Source: Toxonevra muliebris (lineage: Eukaryota > Arthropoda > Insecta > Diptera > Pallopteridae). From it: a DNA stretch of 64,000 nt. Below, piece after piece: positions 1 to 10,616 of the stretch. The position numbers were made by a program, and so were the translations under genes. The notes under the pieces are model-generated. The model saw nothing but the letters and a program-made list of their open reading frames with translations. It was not told the DNA's origin and ran no database searches. How positions within the stretch are numbered: the first letter of the stretch is position 1; every line of letters starts with the position of its first letter. The stretch lies in assembly GCA_963691655.1 (NCBI GenBank), contig OY829326.1:112503388-112567387 (forward strand). Direction: 5' to 3'.

Positions 1-552
1 GAGACTAATAATTTGTTTCATTATGAAGGTGGCGTTGTTGAAATACCTGTGGGATCTTACGAGGTGGATGATATCAAAAATTATATTGTGTCGGAATTGC
101 AACGTGCAAACTTGTCAACTACATTGTCAATTTATGCAAACAACAACACGCTCAAAACAGAAGTCAAGTCCAATAAACGAATCTGGTTCAATAGAGATCG
201 AAGTATCGGTTCGCTATTAGGATTTAGCAAAAGAGAACTAAACGCAAATACTTTACATATATCTGACAATCCTGTTAATATTATTAAAGTTAATAGCATA
301 CGCATTGAATGTAATTTGATAATGGGATCATACATAAATAACGTGCCTGTGCATACGCTTCATGAATTTTCACCAGATGTTAGCCCAGGCTATAAAATAA
401 ACGAAGTTCCGAATAATGTTATATATTTACCAGTGAACGTTCGCGAGATAAGTTCTATATCAGTTAAGCTGGTAGATCAAAACGGTGATCTAATAAATTT
501 CCGCGGAGAAACAATCACTCTTCGTATCCACCTTAAACCTCAAAAAGAATGA
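1..552 (+). CDS. Probable minor capsid (penton-like) protein of a Polinton/adintovirus-like element, 5'-partial
   Basis: The reading frame is open from base 1 to the TGA at 550-552. The codon at 13 is TTG, not ATG, so the true start lies left of the window; about 183 codons are visible. The C-terminal half is rich in alternating hydrophobic residues and ends in beta-strand-like segments (SISVKLVDQNGDLINFRG, then ITLRIHLK), as in a small jelly-roll protein. In Polintons and adintoviruses a short jelly-roll penton protein is encoded close to the major capsid gene, which matches this position. The stop overlaps the start of the next ORF (ATGA at 549-552), and all three + strand ORFs form one compact block. 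The minor-capsid assignment rests on context and general fold impression, not on a catalytic motif. It could be another virion protein. There is no stop or frameshift in the visible part. Confidence 0.5.
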   Translation, partial: ETNNLFHYEGGVVEIPVGSYEVDDIKNYIVSELQRANLSTTLSIYANNNTLKTEVKSNKRIWFNRDRSIGSLLGFSKRELNANTLHISDNPVNIIKVNSIRIECNLIMGSYINNVPVHTLHEFSPDVSPGYKINEVPNNVIYLPVNVREISSISVKLVDQNGDLINFRGETITLRIHLKPQKE

Positions 553-722
553 TTATTTATAATAAAAATTTTATGAAACATGTACCTTTTGTCAGTTCTA
601 TGTCAACTGTTGAACAAAGAAGAGGAGTCATAGATACGAGAGCTCAAAACAAAATATTAACAAAATCAAATACGGAATTTTTGAAAACATTAGGATTCAA
701 AATAAAAACGCATTATGAGTGA
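549..722 (+). CDS. Small 57-residue ORF between the two capsid-module genes
   Basis: ATG at 549-551 overlaps the previous stop as ATGA, and the TGA at 720-722 overlaps the start of the next gene (ATG at 715-717). The predicted 57-residue protein is basic, has no obvious membrane segment, and ends in a hydrophobic/basic stretch, FLKTLGFKIKTH. I do not recognise the family. Its exact fit between two long ORFs, with overlaps of 4 and 8 bases, argues that it is a real gene rather than chance. In related virus-like elements small ORFs beside the capsid genes often encode accessory virion or maturation proteins, but no function can be given here. Its short length and lack of a recognised domain keep the confidence moderate. 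Confidence 0.5.
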   Translation: MIIYNKNFMKHVPFVSSMSTVEQRRGVIDTRAQNKILTKSNTEFLKTLGFKIKTHYE

Positions 723-1908
723 AATAATCAACATTTTACAAAAACCTTTGTATGACGACAGTGTTATCAAAAAAGAGTATCATAGCTACTCATCATACTT
801 ACAATCATTTAATAACAGCGATGAAATCCGTATACCTATTCAACATCAGGATCTCTACATTTTACCTAGCGAAAGTTTTATTTTTATTGATGGTTTAATA
901 ACAGTAGATCCGAAGAAAGTTTCAAATAATATTAAATTCAAAAACAATTGTATAGGATTTTTATTTGATGAAATTCGTTATGAAATAAATGGAATGGAAA
1001 TTGATCGGACACGTAATCTAGGAATCAGTACAACAATGAAAAATTATGTTTCTCTAAGCGGTAATGAAAGCAAAATGCTGCAGAATGCCGGATGGTCAAC
1101 TCATAAAGAATTAGTACCAAAAGAAGGACATTTTAACTTTTGCATCCCTTTAAAAATGTTTTTAGGATTTGCTGAAGACTATCATAAAATAATTTTGAAT
1201 GCGAAACATGAATTAATTCTACGACGTGCTAAATCGGATGAATTTGTTGCTCTTTCTACTGATCCGAATGAAAAGGTTAAAATTCAAATTTCAAATGTTA
1301 TGTGGAAAGTTCCACATATTCAACTATCAGATTCAAATAAGCTAGAGATTTACAAGACAATTAAAAGCAGCCGTCCTATCCAATTAGCATTTCGCAGTTG
1401 GGATTGTCATATAAACCCCACACTTGTTGCAGGTACAAATCATATTTGGAATGTTAAACTTGCTCTTCAAAATGAAAGGCCACGTCAAATAATTATTGGA
1501 TTTCAATCAACTGATGGAAAGAATAAAAATACATTTCAACATTGTAATCTCACTGACTTGAAAGTATATTTAAATTCAGAAACATACCCATATGAAGATC
1601 TAAATGTGAAATTTGATCATGATCGTTATGCTATATTATATGAAATGTATTCAAAATTCCAACAATCCTATTATATGAGAGATCCTCAACCACTTCTAAC
1701 TTCCGAAAAATATAAATCTGATGCACCGTTAATAGTAATAGATGTGACATATCAGAATGAAAGTGTTAAAACTGGACCAATTGATATTAGAATCGAATTT
1801 AAATCTTCAAGTAACATTCCAGCAAATACGTCTGCATATTGTTTATTACTTCACGATCGTCTTATTGAATATACTCCTCTAACAAATGAAATACGAAAAA
1901 TTGTATAA
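715..1908 (+). CDS. Probable major capsid protein (double jelly-roll type) of a Polinton/adintovirus-like element
   Basis: An intact 397-codon ORF with an ATG start and TAA stop. It begins with a short polar N-terminus, then IRIPIQHQDLYILPSESFIF (about residues 39-58), a strand-rich region with FLFDEIRYEINGMEIDR (about 84-100), a central block around RSWDCHINPTL, and a C-terminal half with YLNSETYPYEDLNVKF and a closing HDRLIEYTPL. This strand-rich architecture, and the recurrent appearance of such proteins next to protein-primed polymerases in invertebrate genomes, fit the major capsid protein of adintovirus/Polinton-like elements. At 397 residues it is at or below the short end of typical double jelly-roll capsid proteins. 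It lies directly after a probable minor capsid gene and converges on the polymerase. There is no stop or frameshift, which suggests recent insertion or continuing selection. The assignment is from remembered family resemblance; a structure prediction would test it. Confidence 0.6.
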   Translation: MSEIINILQKPLYDDSVIKKEYHSYSSYLQSFNNSDEIRIPIQHQDLYILPSESFIFIDGLITVDPKKVSNNIKFKNNCIGFLFDEIRYEINGMEIDRTRNLGISTTMKNYVSLSGNESKMLQNAGWSTHKELVPKEGHFNFCIPLKMFLGFAEDYHKIILNAKHELILRRAKSDEFVALSTDPNEKVKIQISNVMWKVPHIQLSDSNKLEIYKTIKSSRPIQLAFRSWDCHINPTLVAGTNHIWNVKLALQNERPRQIIIGFQSTDGKNKNTFQHCNLTDLKVYLNSETYPYEDLNVKFDHDRYAILYEMYSKFQQSYYMRDPQPLLTSEKYKSDAPLIVIDVTYQNESVKTGPIDIRIEFKSSSNIPANTSAYCLLLHDRLIEYTPLTNEIRKIV

Positions 1909-2202
1909 ACACAAAACGGAGAAATATTGGAACCCTCTGAAAATGGAATACTTACTTTGGCATAATCATCGTTGCAAATAAAATAAGAACATATGTAATT
2001 TTTTATTTTTATTAAACATTTTATTAATAATAAAGAATTCATTTTGAAATAAATACAAAGCACAACATTTTTTCATTTATTTACATATTTTTCCTTTTTT
2101 TTTTATAAAAGGGATCAAAACTTATAAAATAAAGAACTATACAATCACAATATTCAAATAAAGTTAAACTTATAAAATAAAGAACTATAAAATAAAGAAC
2201 TC
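1909..2202. other. Convergent intergenic spacer with poly(A) signals
   Basis: This spacer separates the capsid block from the convergent polymerase gene. AATAAA occurs at about 1978-1983, fitting 3' end formation of the + strand transcript, and TTTATT on the + strand (for example near 2074) can serve the - strand transcript. At about 2128-2200 the phrase ACTTATAAAATAAAGAACTA occurs twice and its second half a third time, a small direct repeat just before the polymerase stop. No ORF is seen. Confidence 0.5.
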
Positions 2203-5200
2203 TTACACATCTATTCTATAATGCCCCCAAGCGTATGTATTGATGCCATCAGATCTAATGCACCTTTTGTCATCGTTACAACTCAAAGTTATTTTGTTTA
2301 ATGCGTTTGTATACACAGTATGCATGTTTGATTTAAATGTATACATACATCCACGAAATACTTTTTTGTTGTAAAGACACTCTTTATAGTCAATTAGACC
2401 CATATCTTTAAGAACAGACTTCTTTACCCCTTTAGCCTTTGTTATTTCATTGCAATTTTCCACATCAATGGAATACATTTTTGACCTTAAGCCAATGAAT
2501 TCTTTCATTATTCTCCCTTGATTTTCGTCTTTCATCATTCCCAAAACTTTTTTATTTTTTTGAGGAAATTTGAAACGATTTTCGGGGGGATAATCAGAAG
2601 TGTCAAATTTTGAATCGATATCATTTGCAATATCACAATAAAAGTCTTCAGTTTTTATTGTGTATACAAATGAATCTGTATCCATATAGTTCAAACACAA
2701 ATTTTCATTATATTTAGGTTTCATGTACTCATAATGGAAATCATACATTTTCCACTTTGATATTTCAAGCACACAGAAACCTAAATATATTGGTTTATCA
2801 TAGCATATATGCACTCTATTCATTTGAACCGCAACCATATTTGTAATGAATTCGGTACAGCTATGAAAATTAGGCTTGGCAATTAGAGCTCTCGCCCCTA
2901 AATGTCTCCCTCTATTTTCCCATCCTGTCACTATTTTAACATCTTTTCGCTTTTCTACATTTTCCATTGTTTTTCCATACACGGCATTGTTCAATAGCTT
3001 AAAGAAATTCTTTTCAAACTCATTTCTTGCTAGTGTTCTATGGTGAGTATTTAAATCAATGTAGTCTTTCAACCAACATTTTTGACTAAACCGTAGAACT
3101 CTATGAATTTGTGACAATTTTAAACCATATTTTAGGCATTGCAGTAAATTTTGAGAATGAATAATATATTTGGTTTTATTTCCTAAGTTGGGTATTAACT
3201 TCGCAAATTTGGAGTCCCCAACTGTTTTGATTTCCGCACAAAATGGCAAATCATTGTGGTAATCATGAATAGCACTTGGATATTCTAAATCCACTTCCAA
3301 AATATAACCTACACTCAAATCAGAATTTATTTGAGAGATGTCAAAATCGATTGCATCAATCCACTCAAAATTACCATATGGTAGCGGTTGTGACATAGCC
3401 CAACCGTACAAATTATTTGCATCTAAATACATGAGATATTCAGATGTTTTATCATCATCATAATTACTCAAGTATTTATTGTTTGCTTTCGAATGCCTTT
3501 TAGAACATTGAACAATGCCTCCCCGTATGCCCCTTTGGACAAATGTCTGCATATTAATATCACTGAAAAGTTCAAGTTTTATTTCAGTTATTTTTAACAT
3601 GGCATCCCATGACAGACCAGGTGCTGTATAATAATGACAAGGGTCAAGATTATATATTTTTTTGCAAATTTTTCTAAAATTTTCAAAAATATCTGTAAGC
3701 AGAAGCACGTCAGATGTTAAATATAGTTCCAGATAATCCCACATTGATCTGCACTGGAAGGAATCCCAAACATTTTGAGCATGTTGGAAGTCCTCCTCAA
3801 AGCATTCAATGTTGTTTAATCTACTGAAAAATTTATCGCGAGATGGGAGACAATTTTCATTTAATTTTTCCCAAGAGTCTATGTACTCATAAGGGAATAC
3901 TCCTTTTCTAGTAATTAAATTAAATTCGTTATCACTTTCGAACTTTGACTTAACTGCTTGAAAATCTTCTTTCATGAGATTTTTAGCTAAAGATTCTAAA
4001 CTTGAGGGCATGAATCTAAAGGAGTCTAAAAATCTTAGCTCTATAGTTTGATTATCACTCACAACTATAAGCTTTGAAAGTGATATATATAATTCCTTAT
4101 TTAAAGGAATTAATGTAATGTCACCTGGAATATTTGCTAATTCCTTAACAAATAAATGACAATCATAGCCAGAAAAGTTATGAAAAAAAATTGGGAAAAA
4201 TTTAGGGGAAACATATTTTAAATTGCACTCTGAATGTGCTGGTCCTCTATATTTGCCAGTTAGATGACAATGATTAGAAACTCTATCTGTCTGATTTAAA
4301 AACTTTTTACAAATATGGCAAATGGGGCTATTAATTTGAAAAATTTCTTCTTCTAATGATAAAAGATTCATTGGCTTTATAATTGAGGTGTATTTATAAT
4401 AGATATCTTTGATATCCTTAACTAAGCTATCAATAAATACGCTGGGGGCATCATCCCCTTTATATATTATGTGCTTATTTAATGCGTCATTATATGAACA
4501 TTTGATAAAGTAACTGAATGCACAAGGGACGTGCTTATTCACTATATTACTATAACTAGATGTCGGATTTTGAGTGCATGTATCAACACTTTGAAGAATG
4601 CATTCAAAATCCGCATATATAACGAATGGTACATCTACCATTTTATTATAGTTTTTAAAACTAATTACCGATTTATCCGCATTCGGCATCCTGCTCACAA
4701 TTTTTCTGCACTCCGTCTTGTGGATGGTTAGCTGCTCCTCCCTCAAAAAATGTTGTAAGCATACATTGCATATGTACAACTCCGTAGAGTGGGCAGTCAA
4801 TTGGCTCCTTATTAGTCTAAAATAATAATAAATAAATAAAGTCAGTATGATATATATATATAGTATGATATAAAAAACTGTACTATGAAAAATAAATAAT
4901 ATAAATAAAAATTTGAAATAAAAGTTCATATAAAAATTATTTTTACCTTGAAATATGTTTTATCCACACGTAATGGAAAATGTCATCTTCCTGAAGTAGC
5001 AGCAAATTGATGTGAGTATCTCGTTCACATTTGGTCGTATAGTACGGACCCACTATTTGTTTTGAGTCCGCGTCGTAACCGAAAACGTTTACACTAATCG
5101 GGTTATTATTTTCAAATGTTTTTATCCCGGTAATTTTAAGTGGAAATTCTAATCCACTAAAATTAATATTTTGATCACCGATTTTTATGCTATTAGCATT

Positions 5201-6667
5201 AATGTTTATTATTGCATACGATGCAACTCTCTGCGGATTATTCGCGACATTTTTTAAAGCTGATATCACAGCCCACTTAAAACAAAAATTGTCTTCGTTT
5301 TTTATATTTATGCATGCCCGTTTGTCTTCCAAATATTTTGGAAGCTTAAGGTAAGACGAACCTCTAAGCGCGGCGTATTTATTTATGCTAATATCGAGGT
5401 AGCAGATACTGAAAAGCGACCAACCGCTACCTCGTTCTTCAAAAGCACTTAATTTGTTTTGGATAATATCCTCAACTTTTTCGGTGAAAGATTGAGGTAT
5501 TTCCGCATTGTTTTGAATAACGCGCATTTTCGTTTGAAACGTTTTCAAACTTAGCTCAATGTTCTCACTTTCGAAAGCGTCTTCGCTTTCGTTTTCAATT
5601 GTTTTAATGTACACGCAATACAACTCGATATTGTATTTGCATGCAATATGTCGCAATAAGAAATCACTTAAAAGTTTGTGCGTCTGATTTCTTATTGCGT
5701 TAAAAAAATTCATCGGATCGAGATTATACTCGTCCTTATTTTTTATTCGGTAAGTTACAATACGGTTATTGAAACTTCCGGTTCTTATTTTAAATAGATT
5801 ATCTTCTATTTGAAACAAAGAATTTTTTTTGTGTTCATTGGTCCTAATGTGACCACTCCACTCGTTTATCGCAATGTTCACTTTGCACATTGTGCAATAT
5901 TTCACTTTTTTTGTTATGACCTTATTAACTTCTAAGCTAATAAGGTCTAAAAATGAAGACGCACCCGATTCGGTGTGGTCATGAATTTTTTGTTTTAATT
6001 CTTTACATATTTCATTATATGTCGGATTAATAGCGCTTTGATTGTTAATTGTTTTTGAACCCGTTTCAAAAGTTATTTTTTTGATAATACCAGTGTTGTC
6101 GTACACTGGAATATCTTCACAAATTAGTTTTGCTTTGAAAACTATTTCTTTATGTTCAAACAACAGTTCTTTCACAACTGTTGTTACATCTTTTTTAATG
6201 TTTTGTAGGAAATCGCGGTTCCCATTATTTTTAAAGTTAAACTTTTCATGTTCACCCGTTGGAACATCAATTATTTTTGAAATATTGTCACTGTCTATGG
6301 TGTCATCAACCTGCATCGCGTTATGCGAAGTTGAAGCACCATTATTAATCACTGACTCCACTGTTTCTATGGGTGCCTCAACTTGCATCGCGTTATGCGA
6401 AGTTGAAGCACCATTATTAATCACTGACTCCACTGTTTCTATGGGTGCCTCAACTTGCATCGCGTTATGCGAAGTTGAGGCCCCTTCACTTGCCACTATT
6501 GAGTGGACAGCTCTTTTGTGACGTAATAAACCGTCATTTCTCATGAACGATTTATTACAGAGCTCACAATTAACTTTTTTTTGATCATGGACCGACCTCT
6601 TATGACGCAACAAATTAGTGTTTGTTAAGAACGACGCACCGCACTCTAAACACTCGAAGGTCTTCAT
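2203..6667 (-). CDS. Protein-primed family B DNA polymerase with N-terminal zinc-finger extension (two exons)
   Basis: Exon 1 is 6667-4947 and exon 2 is 4816-2203; together 1445 codons including the stop. The N-terminus has two C2H2 fingers (about residues 5-26 and 34-55), then 24-residue tandem repeats (about 63-135), then a third CxxC..H..H-like motif near residue 260. A conserved pre-polymerase domain spans the exon junction and ends in a C2HC motif. The exonuclease motif YADFECIL carries D643 and E645. An HNH/endonuclease VII-like knuckle (CHIC...HLTGKYRG...CN, about 740-772) is inserted before the second exonuclease motif (FSGYDCHLF). The third exonuclease motif is YLTSDVLLLTDIF. Polymerase motifs are DANNLYGWAM, LLNNAVYGKTMEN and YMDTDS (about 1284), and the C-terminus TYAWGHYRI is complete. 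This is the replicative polymerase of Polinton/adintovirus-type elements. All catalytic motifs look intact. The start at 6667 is the first ATG before the first zinc finger. Confidence 0.88.
4817..4946 (-). other. Spliceosomal intron inside the DNA polymerase gene (inferred)
   Basis: On the - strand, exon 1 reads ...ATTTCAAG followed by GTAAAAATAA at 4946, and the acceptor is ...TTATTATTTTAG ending at 4817, followed by ACTAATAAGG. Removing these 130 bases joins the frames exactly (AG plus A gives Arg) and restores a continuous conserved region between the pre-polymerase domain and its C2HC motif. Without splicing, exon 1 stops at 4943 immediately after the donor. The intron is AT-rich with a pyrimidine-poor acceptor tract. 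Splicing is inferred from sequence only. Confidence 0.75.
6313..6480 (-). repeat. 72-bp in-frame tandem repeats coding 24-residue units
   Basis: The phrase GCATCGCG starts at 6313, 6385 and 6457, giving a 72-bp period with two full and one partial copy. The copies are almost identical at DNA level. They encode GASTSHNAMQVEAPIETVES plus four residues between the zinc fingers and the rest of the polymerase N-terminal extension. The near identity points to recent expansion. The unit is acidic and Ser/Thr-rich, probably a flexible linker. Confidence 0.85.
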
Positions 6668-7009
6668 TTTTTAATTTTTCTTGATAGGAATAAACTCGCG
6701 TTGCGCGTAAATTTTTAAAATCAGTACCGTCTTCTAACACTGATAGATAATATCTGTGACATAAAAGTTTATACAGTTATATATCCCTCAGCATCTACTA
6801 ATATACATACATATTATCAATCTACACAAACTTACATACATACATAATGCAAGAGAGACTCCACTTTTGCCAATACGTATAAACGTACATACAAACATAC
6901 ATACGTATAAACATACAAATAAATACATACTTACAATAAGCGTAAATAAGCATAATGAATACTTAGAGTGATACTGCACTTCTGCCCACACATAAGACCA
7001 CAAGCACAA
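6668..7009. other. Upstream region of the polymerase gene; no gene seen
   Basis: About 340 bases 5' of the polymerase ATG. The first 100 bases carry a small GC-richer patch (CTCGCGTTGCGCGTAAA near 6692-6708), after which the sequence becomes CATA/TACATA-type simple sequence. A promoter for the polymerase must lie here if the gene is expressed, but I cannot point to a certain TATA box. The boundary between the viral element and host DNA was not found. Confidence 0.3.
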
Positions 7010-8220
7010 TAATGTAAACAACGATCGTGGAGAAGTTAATTAATCGACTAACGAAAGTTTATTGTAAACAATTGTGAGATTTTTTTCCCACAATGCAAGA
7101 AAGAATAGTTAAAAATGAGAATGCAGTCCTTTTTCCTGTTCGCTTGGTGCTTTTCAACTTATTGAACATTGAGTGTGTGTATCACATTCAACAAAATGTA
7201 AACAATGATCGTGGAGAAGTGAAATCGATTAATTAAAGGCAATATATACAAATCAGAGTATGTGATAACAAACAAAACTGTTATGCAAGATTTTTTTCCC
7301 ACTGTTATGCAAGAAAGAATAGTTAAAAATGAGAATGCAGTCCTTTTTCCTGTTCGCTTGGTGCTTTTCAACTTATTGAACATGTTTAAACATGAAATTT
7401 TTCATAATGTATGACTGTATCATTTAAAGGCAATATTTACAAATCACAGTATGTGATAATTTGATTTTGCGGCTGATATGCACTTGACTCCTCTCAATTC
7501 ACTGTGCCAAATGTAAACAATGATCGTGAGAAAAAACACTAGGTCTTTTTAATGAGTGTGTATGTATGTATGTATGTAAGGAAAGGGAGGGAAAAATAAA
7601 GCAAAATTGTATTCCATTTATGCTTTCTACTTTTTCTGCTTGCCTGGTGGCGTAAAAAAAGCCATTCCCCATTCCCCATTGTGCCAGAACATACATATCC
7701 CTACTACTGTATATGTATGTTCTGGCACAAATGGGATTAGGGGAATGAGAATACAGTTCTGTTCTGGAAATTCGTTTTGTAGCATATCAGCTATCCTATC
7801 CTATCCTATGTGTATCACAAAACAAACTTCAAATATCAAAAAAAAACACAATGATGTGCGGAGTTGAAATATATTTTTTGTATATTGTTTCTATATGATG
7901 CCAATGGGGAATGAGAATACAGTTCTTTTTCCTGTTCTGATAATTTGTTCTGCAGCTAATATGTATCCTATCCTATGTGTATCACAAAACAAACTTCAAA
8001 TATCAAAACAAAAAAAAAAAAAAAAAAACACAATGATGTGCAGAGTTAAAATATATTTTTTGTTATTTATGCTTTTTCTTTTTTCTGTTTGTCTGGTTCT
8101 TATATGTGTATTACAAAACAAACTTCAGATATAAAAAAAAAACACAATGATGTGCGGGGTTAAAAAATATTTTTTGTTATTTATGCTTTCTCTTTTTTCT
8201 GTTTGCCTGGTTCTTATTCA
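7010..8220. repeat. Nested tandem duplications beside the polymerase gene
   Basis: Several diverged units recur in direct orientation. One begins GTAAACAAYGATCGTGGAGA at about 7013 and 7200, with a variant at 7513. A second, GCAAGAAAGAATAGTTAAAA, occurs at about 7094 and 7309 and runs to CAACTTATTGAACAT in both. A third, GGGGAATGAGAATACAGTTC, at about 7739 and 7904 leads to TCCTATGTGTATCACAAAAC, then an A-run and CACAATGATGTGC (about 7847, 8029 and 8145). These look like repeated duplication of one ancestral block. No gene is seen; the short ORFs are low-complexity. Confidence 0.7.
7679..7730. repeat. Isolated copy of a perfect 20-bp-stem hairpin
   Basis: TTGTGCCAGAACATACATAT (7679-7698), a 12-base loop CCCTACTACTGT, and the exact reverse complement (7711-7730). 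It is preceded by CATTCCC-type repeats and followed by ATGGG, so pairing can extend into CCCATT. The same hairpin recurs in the array at 8311-8759. Confidence 0.9.
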
Positions 8221-8310
8221 AAGGTTTCATATAAATTATTATTGGTTCTTGCAATTCCCGTCTATTATTTTGTGAAAAATATATATATTTACTTATTAAA
8301 AAAACGGTTT

Positions 8311-8759
8311 AACATTCCCCTTGTGCCAGAACATACATATCCCTACTACTGTATATGTATGTTCTGGCACAAGCCCCATTCCCCATTCCCCATTCCTCAT
8401 TCCCCATTCCCCATTCCCCATTCCCCATTCCTCATTCCTCATTCCCCATTCCCCATTCCCCTTGTGCCAGAACATACATATCCCTACTACTGTATATGTA
8501 TGTTCTGGCACAAGCCCCATTCCCCATTCCCCATTCCTCATTCCCCATTCCCCATTCCCCATTCCTCATTCCTCATTCCCCATTCCCCATTCCCCTTGTG
8601 CCAGAACATACATATCCCTACTACTGTATATGTATGTTCTGGCACAAGCCCCATTCCCCATTCCCCATTCCTCATTCCCCATTCCCCATTCCCCATTCCT
8701 CATTCCTCATTCCCCATTCCCCATTCCCCTTGTGCCAGAACATACATATCCCTACTACT
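8311..8759. repeat. Hairpin satellite: three and a half units of about 134-141 bp
   Basis: The 20-bp-stem hairpin TTGTGCCAGAACATACATAT / loop / reverse complement starts at 8321, 8462 and 8596, and its first half only at 8730. Spacings are 141, 134 and 134, differing by exactly one 7-bp step. Hairpins are separated by (CATTCCC/CATTCCT)n heptamer arrays. The array ends mid-loop at 8759. All copies of the stem are identical, which points to very recent homogenisation. The long ORFs through it on both strands are translations of the repeat and are not genes. Confidence 0.92.
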
Positions 8760-10616
8760 CTAATGAACTTAAATTGGAAAAAATTTCCAAAAATACTTAT
8801 ATGTGCTCATATACTTATACTTATATAGTAAATAAAGAAATAAAAAGAAAAGTTTAATGTGTGCAGCATCATTGAAATAATATAATTTTTCTTCTTTTTT
8901 TTTTACACACCAAAGAACACCAAATATTTTGTGCAAAACTATCAAAATAGTAATCGAAGATTCTGCTCTAGCGCTAGCGTCACTACCACACACTTTTCTT
9001 GGGCCAGTACCCTTCAAGCAAGCTACAAAACCAAAAACTAAGTAAGTAGCGCAGCACAAACGACGAGAACGAGAAATTTTGTTTGCAATTGTGCTGCAAA
9101 AGATTAATGCAAAATTATAGTTAAAGTGTAGGGCAGCAGGAAAAGGAAGAAAAGGCGAAGTGGAGGGTAAGAAACGAAGAAAACTTGCAGCGATACTGTT
9201 GGTCGTTATCGTTGTTGCTGCTGTTGTTTTTGTTGTTGTTGCTCTTGGTATTTTAATTCGCAGTTAGTAGCTCGTTTTGATACCTACCTACAGAATTTGC
9301 TAATAGTTTGGCAATTTCAATAACAACAACAACAAAAAAGAAGAATTAAGGTACAACAACAATGCAGAATCAAAATAGATAAACGCGCGCTTTTCGCTAG
9401 TGTTATTGCAAACTGTATTTATGTGCATGTGTTTGTGGTATACTAGTTAATTTCCTCCCAAAATATACACGTATTTACACACAAACACACACACATGAAC
9501 GTCTACAAGCAGAAATAAATTTTCTTTTCAACGACATGTCGGGAAACGTCCTTGCTCTGCTGCTGCGCTGTTAGTGAGATGAGCAGAAGCAAAGAATCGA
9601 AAAAGCCTGCAAACAACGAAGGCCAAAGAACTTTTGCTCAAGTATTGGAAAGTTTTCTGTATCATCGTTTACAAAGTTTTTATCCGGAAAAAACAACAAA
9701 AAAAATCTCTCTCGAATAAATGTGGGCCAATACAACAGGCAATGACGCGATGTTGCCGTTACCGCTTGAAATCGCTATTGCTGCTTTTCTCGCTGTATTT
9801 TCATTAAGAAATACACTTTGCAACCAACTACTAGACACTGCAACTACTGTATATAGAGGACGAGTAGAATATAACTACACATACAACGATGTGTTCATTC
9901 CACAAAGGAGTCTACGAAATTTTCAAAAATTATTTTAGCATGCTATAAATTTTGTTATTTTCACTATTTTATTTCTTTTTTGCACTTACTTACTCGTTTT
10001 GGTTGCTGCTGTTTTGTTTTTTGTTTTTTGTCTTAGCAATAGTGTTTTCTGTTTCTGTATTTTTGCATAACGCGCGCCGAAACAATTACAACAAATTTGC
10101 TAGCGATAATTAAATGGGTTTGTTGTGTTATAAATACTTCTTGCATAAACATACCTACATGCATATGCCTGCCCGCCCACTTAACTCACTTGCTCTCAAA
10201 ACACAGACGCGCAGTTACTTACTACTTTACTATGCAGATGTCGGTATATATAGCTATGTTTAATTGTATGTAAAGGAAGTGCCACTAGCGGCAGGATATG
10301 TTTCTGTTTTTTTTTTTTTTTTTTTTGTTCAAGTGTATTTTAAGAAATGCAAATTTCTTGTTAATTTAAAATAATCGCTAAGATTTTGTTATTGTTTTTG
10401 CTTTTAGTGCACTAACATAAACCCATTTTACGGTAACTTCATTCACTCTTAAGCGGTTCGTTAGCGGTGCTATTAAGCAATAAGATTAACAAGTTTTTAT
10501 TACACATCGAAGCCATTGAGAAAAAAAATTGAATGGGTACCTGTTAATTGTTTTAGAGTATCTTTTAAAATGCTGATAATATTTTGTTTGATCTTTAACT
10601 ATTTTTATGCACTATT
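8760..10616. other. Non-coding stretch, no gene recognised
   Basis: The sequence is less AT-rich than its surroundings, with CAA/GTT trinucleotide runs (GTTGTTGCTGCTGTTGTTTT near 9210-9230; AACAACAACAAC near 9322) and many short purine runs. This composition resembles untranslated or regulatory DNA of fly genes, but no ORF of convincing composition or length was seen. The 72-codon ORF at 9720-9938 has no recognisable domain. T-runs occur near 10305-10326. A host 5' region is possible but not shown. Confidence 0.3.

What the first reader, a model, noticed from the sequence alone, without database searches (positions are those of the whole stretch)
1..6667. Half of a Polinton/adintovirus-like endogenous virus with all visible genes open
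Three + strand capsid-module ORFs and a convergent protein-primed DNA polymerase with every recognised motif present are free of stops and frameshifts in their exons, whereas almost every other mobile element in this window is broken. This suggests a recent integration, continuing selection, or an active virus-like element in a fly. Gene content is from the sequence; family naming is established knowledge; activity is inference.
Basis: partly seen in the sequence, partly recalled or inferred. Interest (0 to 1): 0.88.

Follow-up and report, generated by a model that had tools for sequence, protein, structure and literature searches.

The report
Recently multiplied virus-like transposon in fly
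The window cuts through a Maverick (Polinton), a virus-like jumping element of about 15,000 bases with its own capsid, DNA polymerase and integrase genes; the same genome, probably a fly's, carries 28 nearly identical copies, so it spread recently, and its ends carry unusual, fast-changing repeat arrays.

Summary
The element runs from 6,524 bases left of the window to window position 8759 (about 15.3 kb), between copies of the 6-bp duplication CTAATG. To the left lie an integrase, an A32-type ATPase, a parvovirus-type phospholipase-A2 protein and a C5-like protease ORF (sub-threshold in Pfam). The 397-residue protein models as a double jelly-roll (best PDB match PBCV-1 Vp54, E 1.6e-15). The polymerase is two exons around a 130-bp intron. 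Gene set and sizes resemble the published Spodoptera Mavericks: an insect (group II) Maverick.

New here: the assembly holds 28 near-identical copies. 27 have exact 6-bp target duplications, all different; capsid and integrase frames are open in 28 of 28, polymerase exon 2 in 25 of 28. Eight copies compared differ by 0.36% on average. So this is a recent burst; activity today is inference.

Least expected: ends start AGTAGTAGGG, and the 30-base terminal motif recurs 1-15 times per end, in tandem units with 21-bp hairpin arms and a 7-bp minisatellite. Copies end at different motif copies, and the two ends of one copy resemble each other more than chance.

The parts
1..552 (+). Minor capsid protein candidate (penton position), 3' 183 codons; the ORF begins left of the window (L002 643-1338, stop to stop)
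549..722 (+). Short ORF of 57 codons between the two capsid genes, function unknown
   Evidence: 4 variable columns among 8 copies, none synonymous, so conservation is not shown
715..1908 (+). Major capsid protein, 397 codons, double jelly-roll
   Evidence: PF21738 451 bits; 1917 homologues; AF2 pLDDT 82.9, pTM 0.86; PDB best match PBCV-1 Vp54 E 1.6e-15, TM 0.64, also mavirus, Sputnik, Faustovirus, PRD1
2203..4816 (-). Protein-primed DNA polymerase, exon 2 (exonuclease and polymerase region with an Endonuclease_7-like domain)
   Evidence: motifs recognised by eye and recall; PF03175 not matched in the window's own exon
4817..4946 (-). 130-bp GT-AG intron (predicted)
   Evidence: sequence; collinear Musca homologue without the gap; no transcript data
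4947..6667 (-). Polymerase exon 1: two C2H2 zinc fingers, a linker with tandem repeats, then the region that aligns to the N-terminal part of relatives' polymerases (terminal-protein/vOTU region by comparison with PMC11071308; that fold not tested)
6689..7708 (-). Inner part of the right terminal inverted repeat, paired with L009 3477-4482
   Evidence: 95.3% over 1028 columns, 18 mismatches, 3 gap openings
7709..8350 (.). 642-bp block between the innermost terminal motif and the array at the right end; absent from the left end of this copy
8313..8759 (.). Terminal array: units of 134-141 bp with the terminal motif, 21-bp hairpin arms and a 7-bp minisatellite; motif copies end at 7708, 8350, 8491, 8625, 8759
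8760..8765 (.). Right copy of the 6-bp target-site duplication CTAATG (left copy directly before C1:112496864)

Best explanation
One full-length integrated copy (about 15.3 kb) of an insect group II Maverick/Polinton, a virus-like self-synthesising DNA element that multiplied recently in this genome. Shown here: gene content, double jelly-roll capsid fold by prediction, terminal inverted repeats starting 5'-AGTAGTAGGG, 6-bp target duplications, 28 near-identical copies. Inferred: its linear DNA is copied from both ends by the protein-primed polymerase (the doubled AGT would suit slide-back initiation), packaged by the ATPase into a capsid of major and minor capsid proteins matured by the protease, with the phospholipase protein helping entry, and joined to new sites by the integrase, which makes the 6-bp duplication. 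Also inferred: the ends are modular; any copy of the terminal motif can serve as the joined end, and the two ends exchange or template sequence from each other between integrations while array length changes fast.
For: Integrase, ATPase and PLA2 domains above Pfam cut-offs; MCP fold; terminal repeats; exact 6-bp duplications in 27 of 28 copies (26, one more), the first 26 tallied as all different and the 27th different from them; capsid frame open in 28 of 28, integrase in 28 of 28, polymerase exon 2 in 25 of 28, exon 1 uninterrupted in 25 of 28; eight interiors differ by 0.36% on average, 0.65% at most, one pair by 0 of 4190; 11 of 19 variable coding positions synonymous, P 0.004 at an assumed expected fraction of 0.27. 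For the ends: copies end at different motif copies with intact duplications; same-copy left and right arrays share unit lengths, Jaccard 0.33 against 0.08 permuted, p 5e-5, 23 copies; inner repeats 1.25% against 1.51% different, p 5e-5, 25 copies.
Against: The protease is below the Pfam cut-off and has a private five-codon deletion in the window copy; PF03175 did not match the window's polymerase exons; the minor capsid fold was not compared with solved structures. mCP (2 of 4) and polymerase (3 of 7) alone show no significant synonymous excess, and the short ORF has 0 of 4. One copy (C1:24.4) has both ends but no matching duplication. The own right end is strictly the closest right end to the left in only 3 of 25 copies, and array unit numbers at the two ends are not correlated (rho -0.08), so exchange between ends, if real, is not complete at each round. 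ATPase, PLA2, minor capsid and protease were not counted genome-wide.
Confidence: 0.92

Rival explanations
1. In practice a transposon only: it spreads inside the genome by replication and integration, and the capsid genes look intact only because the burst is young; no particle is made.
For: 28 copies in one genome; no viral contigs relatives of the capsid protein; no particle or transcript data.
Against: Capsid frame open in 28 of 28 with 6 of 8 variable codon positions synonymous, P 0.004, and a capsid family of 1917 homologues in the protein search, with 52-65% identity among the 120 listed, argue for selection on the capsid over longer times.
Confidence: 0.3
2. The copies are not active insertions but segmental duplications or assembly duplicates of one old provirus.
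For: Near-identical long repeats are a known assembly hazard; one copy lacks matching duplications.
Against: 27 of 28 copies have their own exact 6-bp duplication, all different, on contigs C1-C5.
Confidence: 0.03
3. The host keeps the element for its own use (capsid or antisense product as defence).
For: Synonymous excess in the capsid gene; decayed same-strand fragments cluster at C1:22.44-22.46 Mb, which could be a small-RNA locus.
Against: All 28 copies are dispersed full-length insertions with their own target duplications or ends, which looks like spread by the element itself rather than retention of one copy.
Confidence: 0.05
4. The terminal arrays are only minisatellites that grow after integration, like any tandem repeat, with no role in the element's life.
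For: 7-bp minisatellite core; lengths vary freely; the assembler may also distort arrays.
Against: Each unit carries the full terminal motif; integrated ends with exact duplications lie at inner as well as outer motif copies; left and right arrays of one copy resemble each other, which independent growth after integration does not predict.
Confidence: 0.4

Closest known systems
Spodoptera frugiperda Mavericks 1 and 2 (PMC5803895; section 11 part 1 and passages seen)
   Same: Same kinds of genes with similar sizes: ATP 228, ORF2 305, INT 310 with chromodomain, PLA2-type CAP 258, PRO 133, an unassigned ORF7 of 404 residues, polymerase with an Endonuclease VII region.
   Different: Here the polymerase has an intron and zinc fingers and about 1,444 codons by exon lengths (theirs 1,162). 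Those authors noted no PY capsid; the 397-residue double jelly-roll protein here suggests that their ORF7 is the capsid, which I did not test by alignment.
Drosophila-associated adintoviruses 1-3 (PMC8363768; passages seen)
   Same: 13.3-14.6 kb with polymerase B, and for adintovirus 1 integrase, capsid, protease and FtsK-type ATPase; two are suspected by the authors to be perhaps integrated.
   Different: Assembled from pooled reads without insertion sites; their sequences were not compared here.
Vertebrate (group I) Mavericks (PMC8097293; passages seen)
   Same: 6-bp target duplications, (AGT)2 ends as the commonest motif, terminal repeats of 46-1,447 bp, up to 38 intact copies in one fish genome.
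   Different: Vertebrate intact elements are described as intronless; insects belong to group II without the VSR insertion (PMC10328495, passage). Terminal-motif arrays are not mentioned in the passages seen.
PBCV-1 Vp54, mavirus and Sputnik major capsid proteins
   Same: Double jelly-roll fold.
   Different: About 10% sequence identity; unrelated hosts.

Membership tests
[quoted passage not shown]
   7492 homologues, several named DNA-directed DNA polymerase, two listed with PF03175; PF03175 itself not matched in the window's exons
Maverick/Polinton | Retroviral-like (rve) integrase | tested here: met
   PF00665 50.6 bits, cut-off 32.6; 28 of 28 copies open
Maverick/Polinton | A32/FtsK-type packaging ATPase | tested here: met
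   Pox_A32 42.1 bits, cut-off 22.8
Maverick/Polinton | Adenovirus-type cysteine protease | tested here: inconclusive
   Peptidase_C5 12.8 bits, below cut-off 21.3, on the ATG-started 85 codons; His-Asp-Cys pattern seen by eye
Maverick/Polinton | Double jelly-roll major capsid protein | tested here: met
Maverick/Polinton | Single jelly-roll minor capsid (penton) protein | tested here: inconclusive
   all-beta model of medium confidence upstream of the major capsid gene; fold search not available
[quoted passage not shown]
   27 of 28 copies
Group II (insect) Maverick | No VSR-type endonuclease insertion in the polymerase | tested here: met
   Pfam scan of both exons at E 1 or less lists Endonuclease_7 and no VSR family; criterion from a passage of PMC10328495
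Adintovirus | Virions that pass between hosts | not testable with these tools
   no reads or particles
Polinton polymerase with terminal-protein and vOTU domains (PMC11071308, abstract and passages) | TP and vOTU folds in the N-terminal part | not tested
   only sequence collinearity with a Musca relative

The most novel reading that the evidence does not exclude
The ends are a multi-exit, telomere-like system: a terminal motif carrying the integration end and presumably the replication origin is repeated in hairpin-bounded minisatellite units, integrations start from any motif copy, units are gained and lost between rounds, and the two ends are rebuilt from each other, so that a linear, protein-capped genome can lose its outermost end and still keep a working one.
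Probability: 0.3. Interest if true: 0.75.

Novelty: new member of a known kind. Interest (0 to 1): 0.55.

Why it matters
Mavericks look like viruses, but their particles have not been observed (abstract of PMC8097293). A genome with 28 near-identical, mapped and mostly open copies is a natural system in which to look for transcripts, nuclease-protected DNA, particles and polymorphic insertions. The terminal arrays are a readable record of what happens to the ends of a protein-primed linear genome between integrations. The capsid assignment also suggests where the major capsid gene lies in insect Mavericks described as lacking the usual one.

Tried and rejected
Viral contigs gave no relatives of the capsid protein, with one sequence or an alignment. 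PDB sequence searches gave nothing convincing for capsid, polymerase or ATPase; only the fold comparison did. Reading the 908-codon ORF as one protein was rejected, its first part being intron. Using divergence between the two terminal repeats of a copy as a clock was rejected: it runs from 0 to 2.8% (25 copies) although the eight interiors compared differ by at most 0.65%, and left repeats resemble other lefts more than their own rights. I first took copy C5:19.9 to lack its left end; that was my fetch being too short, since its integrase lies about 4.6 kb further out than usual, and a further piece showed the end and a matching duplication. An empty-site query was prepared but not searched. 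Starrett et al. on adintoviruses is not held, so adintovirus statements are second-hand or recalled. Literature searches listing no paper evidently about such terminal arrays: (listings only; licensed PMC papers only). No held paper mentions PF21738.

Full report
What was claimed. Capsid-like ORFs and a convergent protein-primed polymerase at the left edge of the window, all open, read as half of a recent or active Polinton/adintovirus-like element in a fly.

Check. The ORFs are there. The 397-codon ORF at 715-1908 matches Pfam PF21738 with 451 bits. The polymerase is a two-exon gene: the ORFs 6667-4943 and 4929-2203 meet at a 130-bp GT-AG intron, 4946-4817. A 1430-residue Musca protein aligns to the first ORF up to its residue 420 and to the second from its residue 420 on. 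The exons were searched apart only. That the host is a fly rests on the nearest named relatives (Lucilia, Calliphora, Stomoxys, Musca, Hermetia); the assembly is unnamed.

The missing half. The window is C1:112503388-112567387 of a 491-Mb assembly in 96 contigs. The 10 kb to the left (L009) hold, outwards from the centre: the start of the minor capsid ORF; a protease-like ORF (L009 9434-9817 + stop to stop, ATG-started part 9560-9817); a 274-codon PLA2 protein (8655-9479 +, PF08398 54.4 bits); the A32 ATPase (8597-7911 -); ORFs of 296 and 149 codons (7725-6835 -, 6815-6366 -) without Pfam support; the integrase (6361-5444 -; PF00665 50.6 bits, chromodomain below cut-off); ORFs of 110 codons (5202-4870 -) and 96 codons (4502-4792 +). 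The left terminal repeat, L009 3477-4482, pairs with window 6689-7708 at 95.3%.

Ends. Comparing copies gave a sharp terminus, 5'-AGTAGTAGGGATATGTATGTTCTGGCACAA, on both sides. The window copy runs from C1:112496864 to window 8759, next to CTAATG on each side: 6,524 + 8,759 = 15,283 bp.

Copies. The capsid protein found 37 matches: 28 full-length, open, 99-100% identical; one full-length open relative at 68%; and eight rows that are pieces of decayed or partial copies on C9, C23, C4 and C1. Twenty-six of the 28 showed an exact 6-bp target duplication and one more after a further fetch: 27 of 28, all different (26 tallied, the 27th differs from them). The exception, C1:24.4, has both ends but no match. 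The integrase is open at 99-100% in 28 of 28. Polymerase exon 2 is open in 25 of 28. Exon 1 is found in all 28 and is uninterrupted in 25: 19 full length and six whose shorter open frame I read as loss of a 24-residue linker repeat. The tool warns that counts of repeats are lower bounds. ATPase, PLA2, minor capsid and protease were not counted genome-wide; protease and minor capsid were seen in eight copies.

Age. Eight copies (the loci returned; 8 of 28) were compared over 4.2 kb: mean difference 0.36%, maximum 0.65%, minimum 0 of 4190, mostly in two groups of four. With 2.8e-9 mutations per site per generation (recalled), the mean corresponds to about 0.64 million generations, the maximum to 1.15 million, and the identical pair to less than about 0.13 million. 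Of 19 variable coding positions 11 are synonymous (P 0.004, assumed expected fraction 0.27); the major capsid alone 6 of 8 (P 0.004); the minor capsid 2 of 4 and the polymerase part 3 of 7 are not significant alone; the short ORF 0 of 4.

Capsid. The capsid protein aligned with 25 of the 120 listed homologues (1917 found) gave a model with pLDDT 82.9 and pTM 0.86. Foldseek puts PBCV-1 Vp54 first (E 1.6e-15, TM 0.64); mavirus, Sputnik, Faustovirus and PRD1 capsid proteins are among the first 50. The minor capsid model, from 26 of 120 listed homologues, is all-beta with lower confidence (pTM 0.56) and could not be compared.

Terminal arrays. The motif (up to 4 substitutions allowed) occurs 284 times over 55 ends and six times at the end found later: 290 over 56 ends, 1-15 per left end and 1-9 per right end. 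Units under 400 bp measure 78-304 bp; 167 of 179 lengths are 1 modulo 7, reflecting a heptamer minisatellite. At the window's unit junctions 21-bp perfect arms surround 12 nt; one junction folds with z -6.1 against shuffles as single-stranded DNA. Left ends at the innermost motif occur in three copies (the window copy, C3:12.2, C4:76.6), and C3:12.2 has its right end there too, all with target duplications, while others end up to 14 motifs further out. Hence any motif copy seems able to be an end. Left and right arrays of one copy share unit lengths more than permuted pairs (0.33 against 0.08; 23 copies; p 5e-5, the floor of 20,000 permutations), and inner repeats are closer within copies (1.25% against 1.51%; 25 copies, one end under 700 bp dropped; same p). 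Against strong coupling: unit numbers at the two ends are uncorrelated (rho -0.08, copy C5:19.9 entered with no left units), and the own right end is strictly the closest in only 3 of 25. I read this as occasional exchange or templating between ends before integration, with fast gain and loss of units. Assembly errors in arrays are possible but would not by themselves make left and right alike.

Relatives. In a tree of 28 polymerases (26 chosen from the 120 listed, the window, and the sibling), the window groups with Hermetia and a beetle, Molorchus minor (86/89), inside a 16-row clade otherwise of flies (99/97): a hint of transfer between orders, or of a contaminated beetle assembly. A second, single element of the same kind lies 0.8 Mb away (C1:111.68 Mb; capsid 68%, integrase 78%, polymerase exon 2 63%, frames open), with terminal repeats of at least 1440 bp differing at one base and a different terminal minisatellite.

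What is known. Gene set and sizes resemble the Spodoptera Mavericks (PMC5803895). (AGT)2 ends, 6-bp duplications and multi-copy intact families are known from vertebrate Mavericks (PMC8097293, passages). Insect elements are group II, and 12 intact ones have been reported (PMC10328495, passage). Penton genes next to the capsid gene are described for Polintons (PMC4028283, passages). The element is therefore a new member of a known kind. I found no paper evidently on terminal-motif arrays.

Verdict. Observation confirmed, interpretation supported, extent corrected to -6523..8759 in window coordinates, present activity unproven.

Noticed in passing
G000 C1:111.677-111.692 Mb (L068, L069): A second, single, open element of the same kind 0.8 Mb from the window (capsid 68%), with terminal repeats of at least 1440 bp differing at one base and its own different terminal minisatellite.
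   Followed up: partly
G000 C1:22.444-22.462 Mb: A cluster of decayed, partly tandem fragments of the polymerase gene (59-95% identity), all rows on the same strand; could be a satellite or a small-RNA locus.
   Followed up: no
left end of the copy at C1:99.0 Mb: The 640-bp block between motif copies appears twice together with its units, as if the end had been added twice.
   Followed up: no
copy at C1:24.4 Mb: Both ends are present but the 6-bp flanks do not match; rearrangement after insertion or an assembly join.
   Followed up: no
copy at C5:19.9 Mb: The integrase lies about 4.6 kb further from the capsid gene than in the window copy, so something of that size sits inside this copy.
   Followed up: partly
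P0144, Molorchus minor (beetle): Its polymerase nests in the fly clade next to the window's: transfer between insect orders or contamination.
   Followed up: no
L002 220-603 (protease ORF): The window copy has a private in-frame five-codon deletion, and no ATG precedes the apparent N-terminus in any of eight copies; the start is unresolved.
   Followed up: partly
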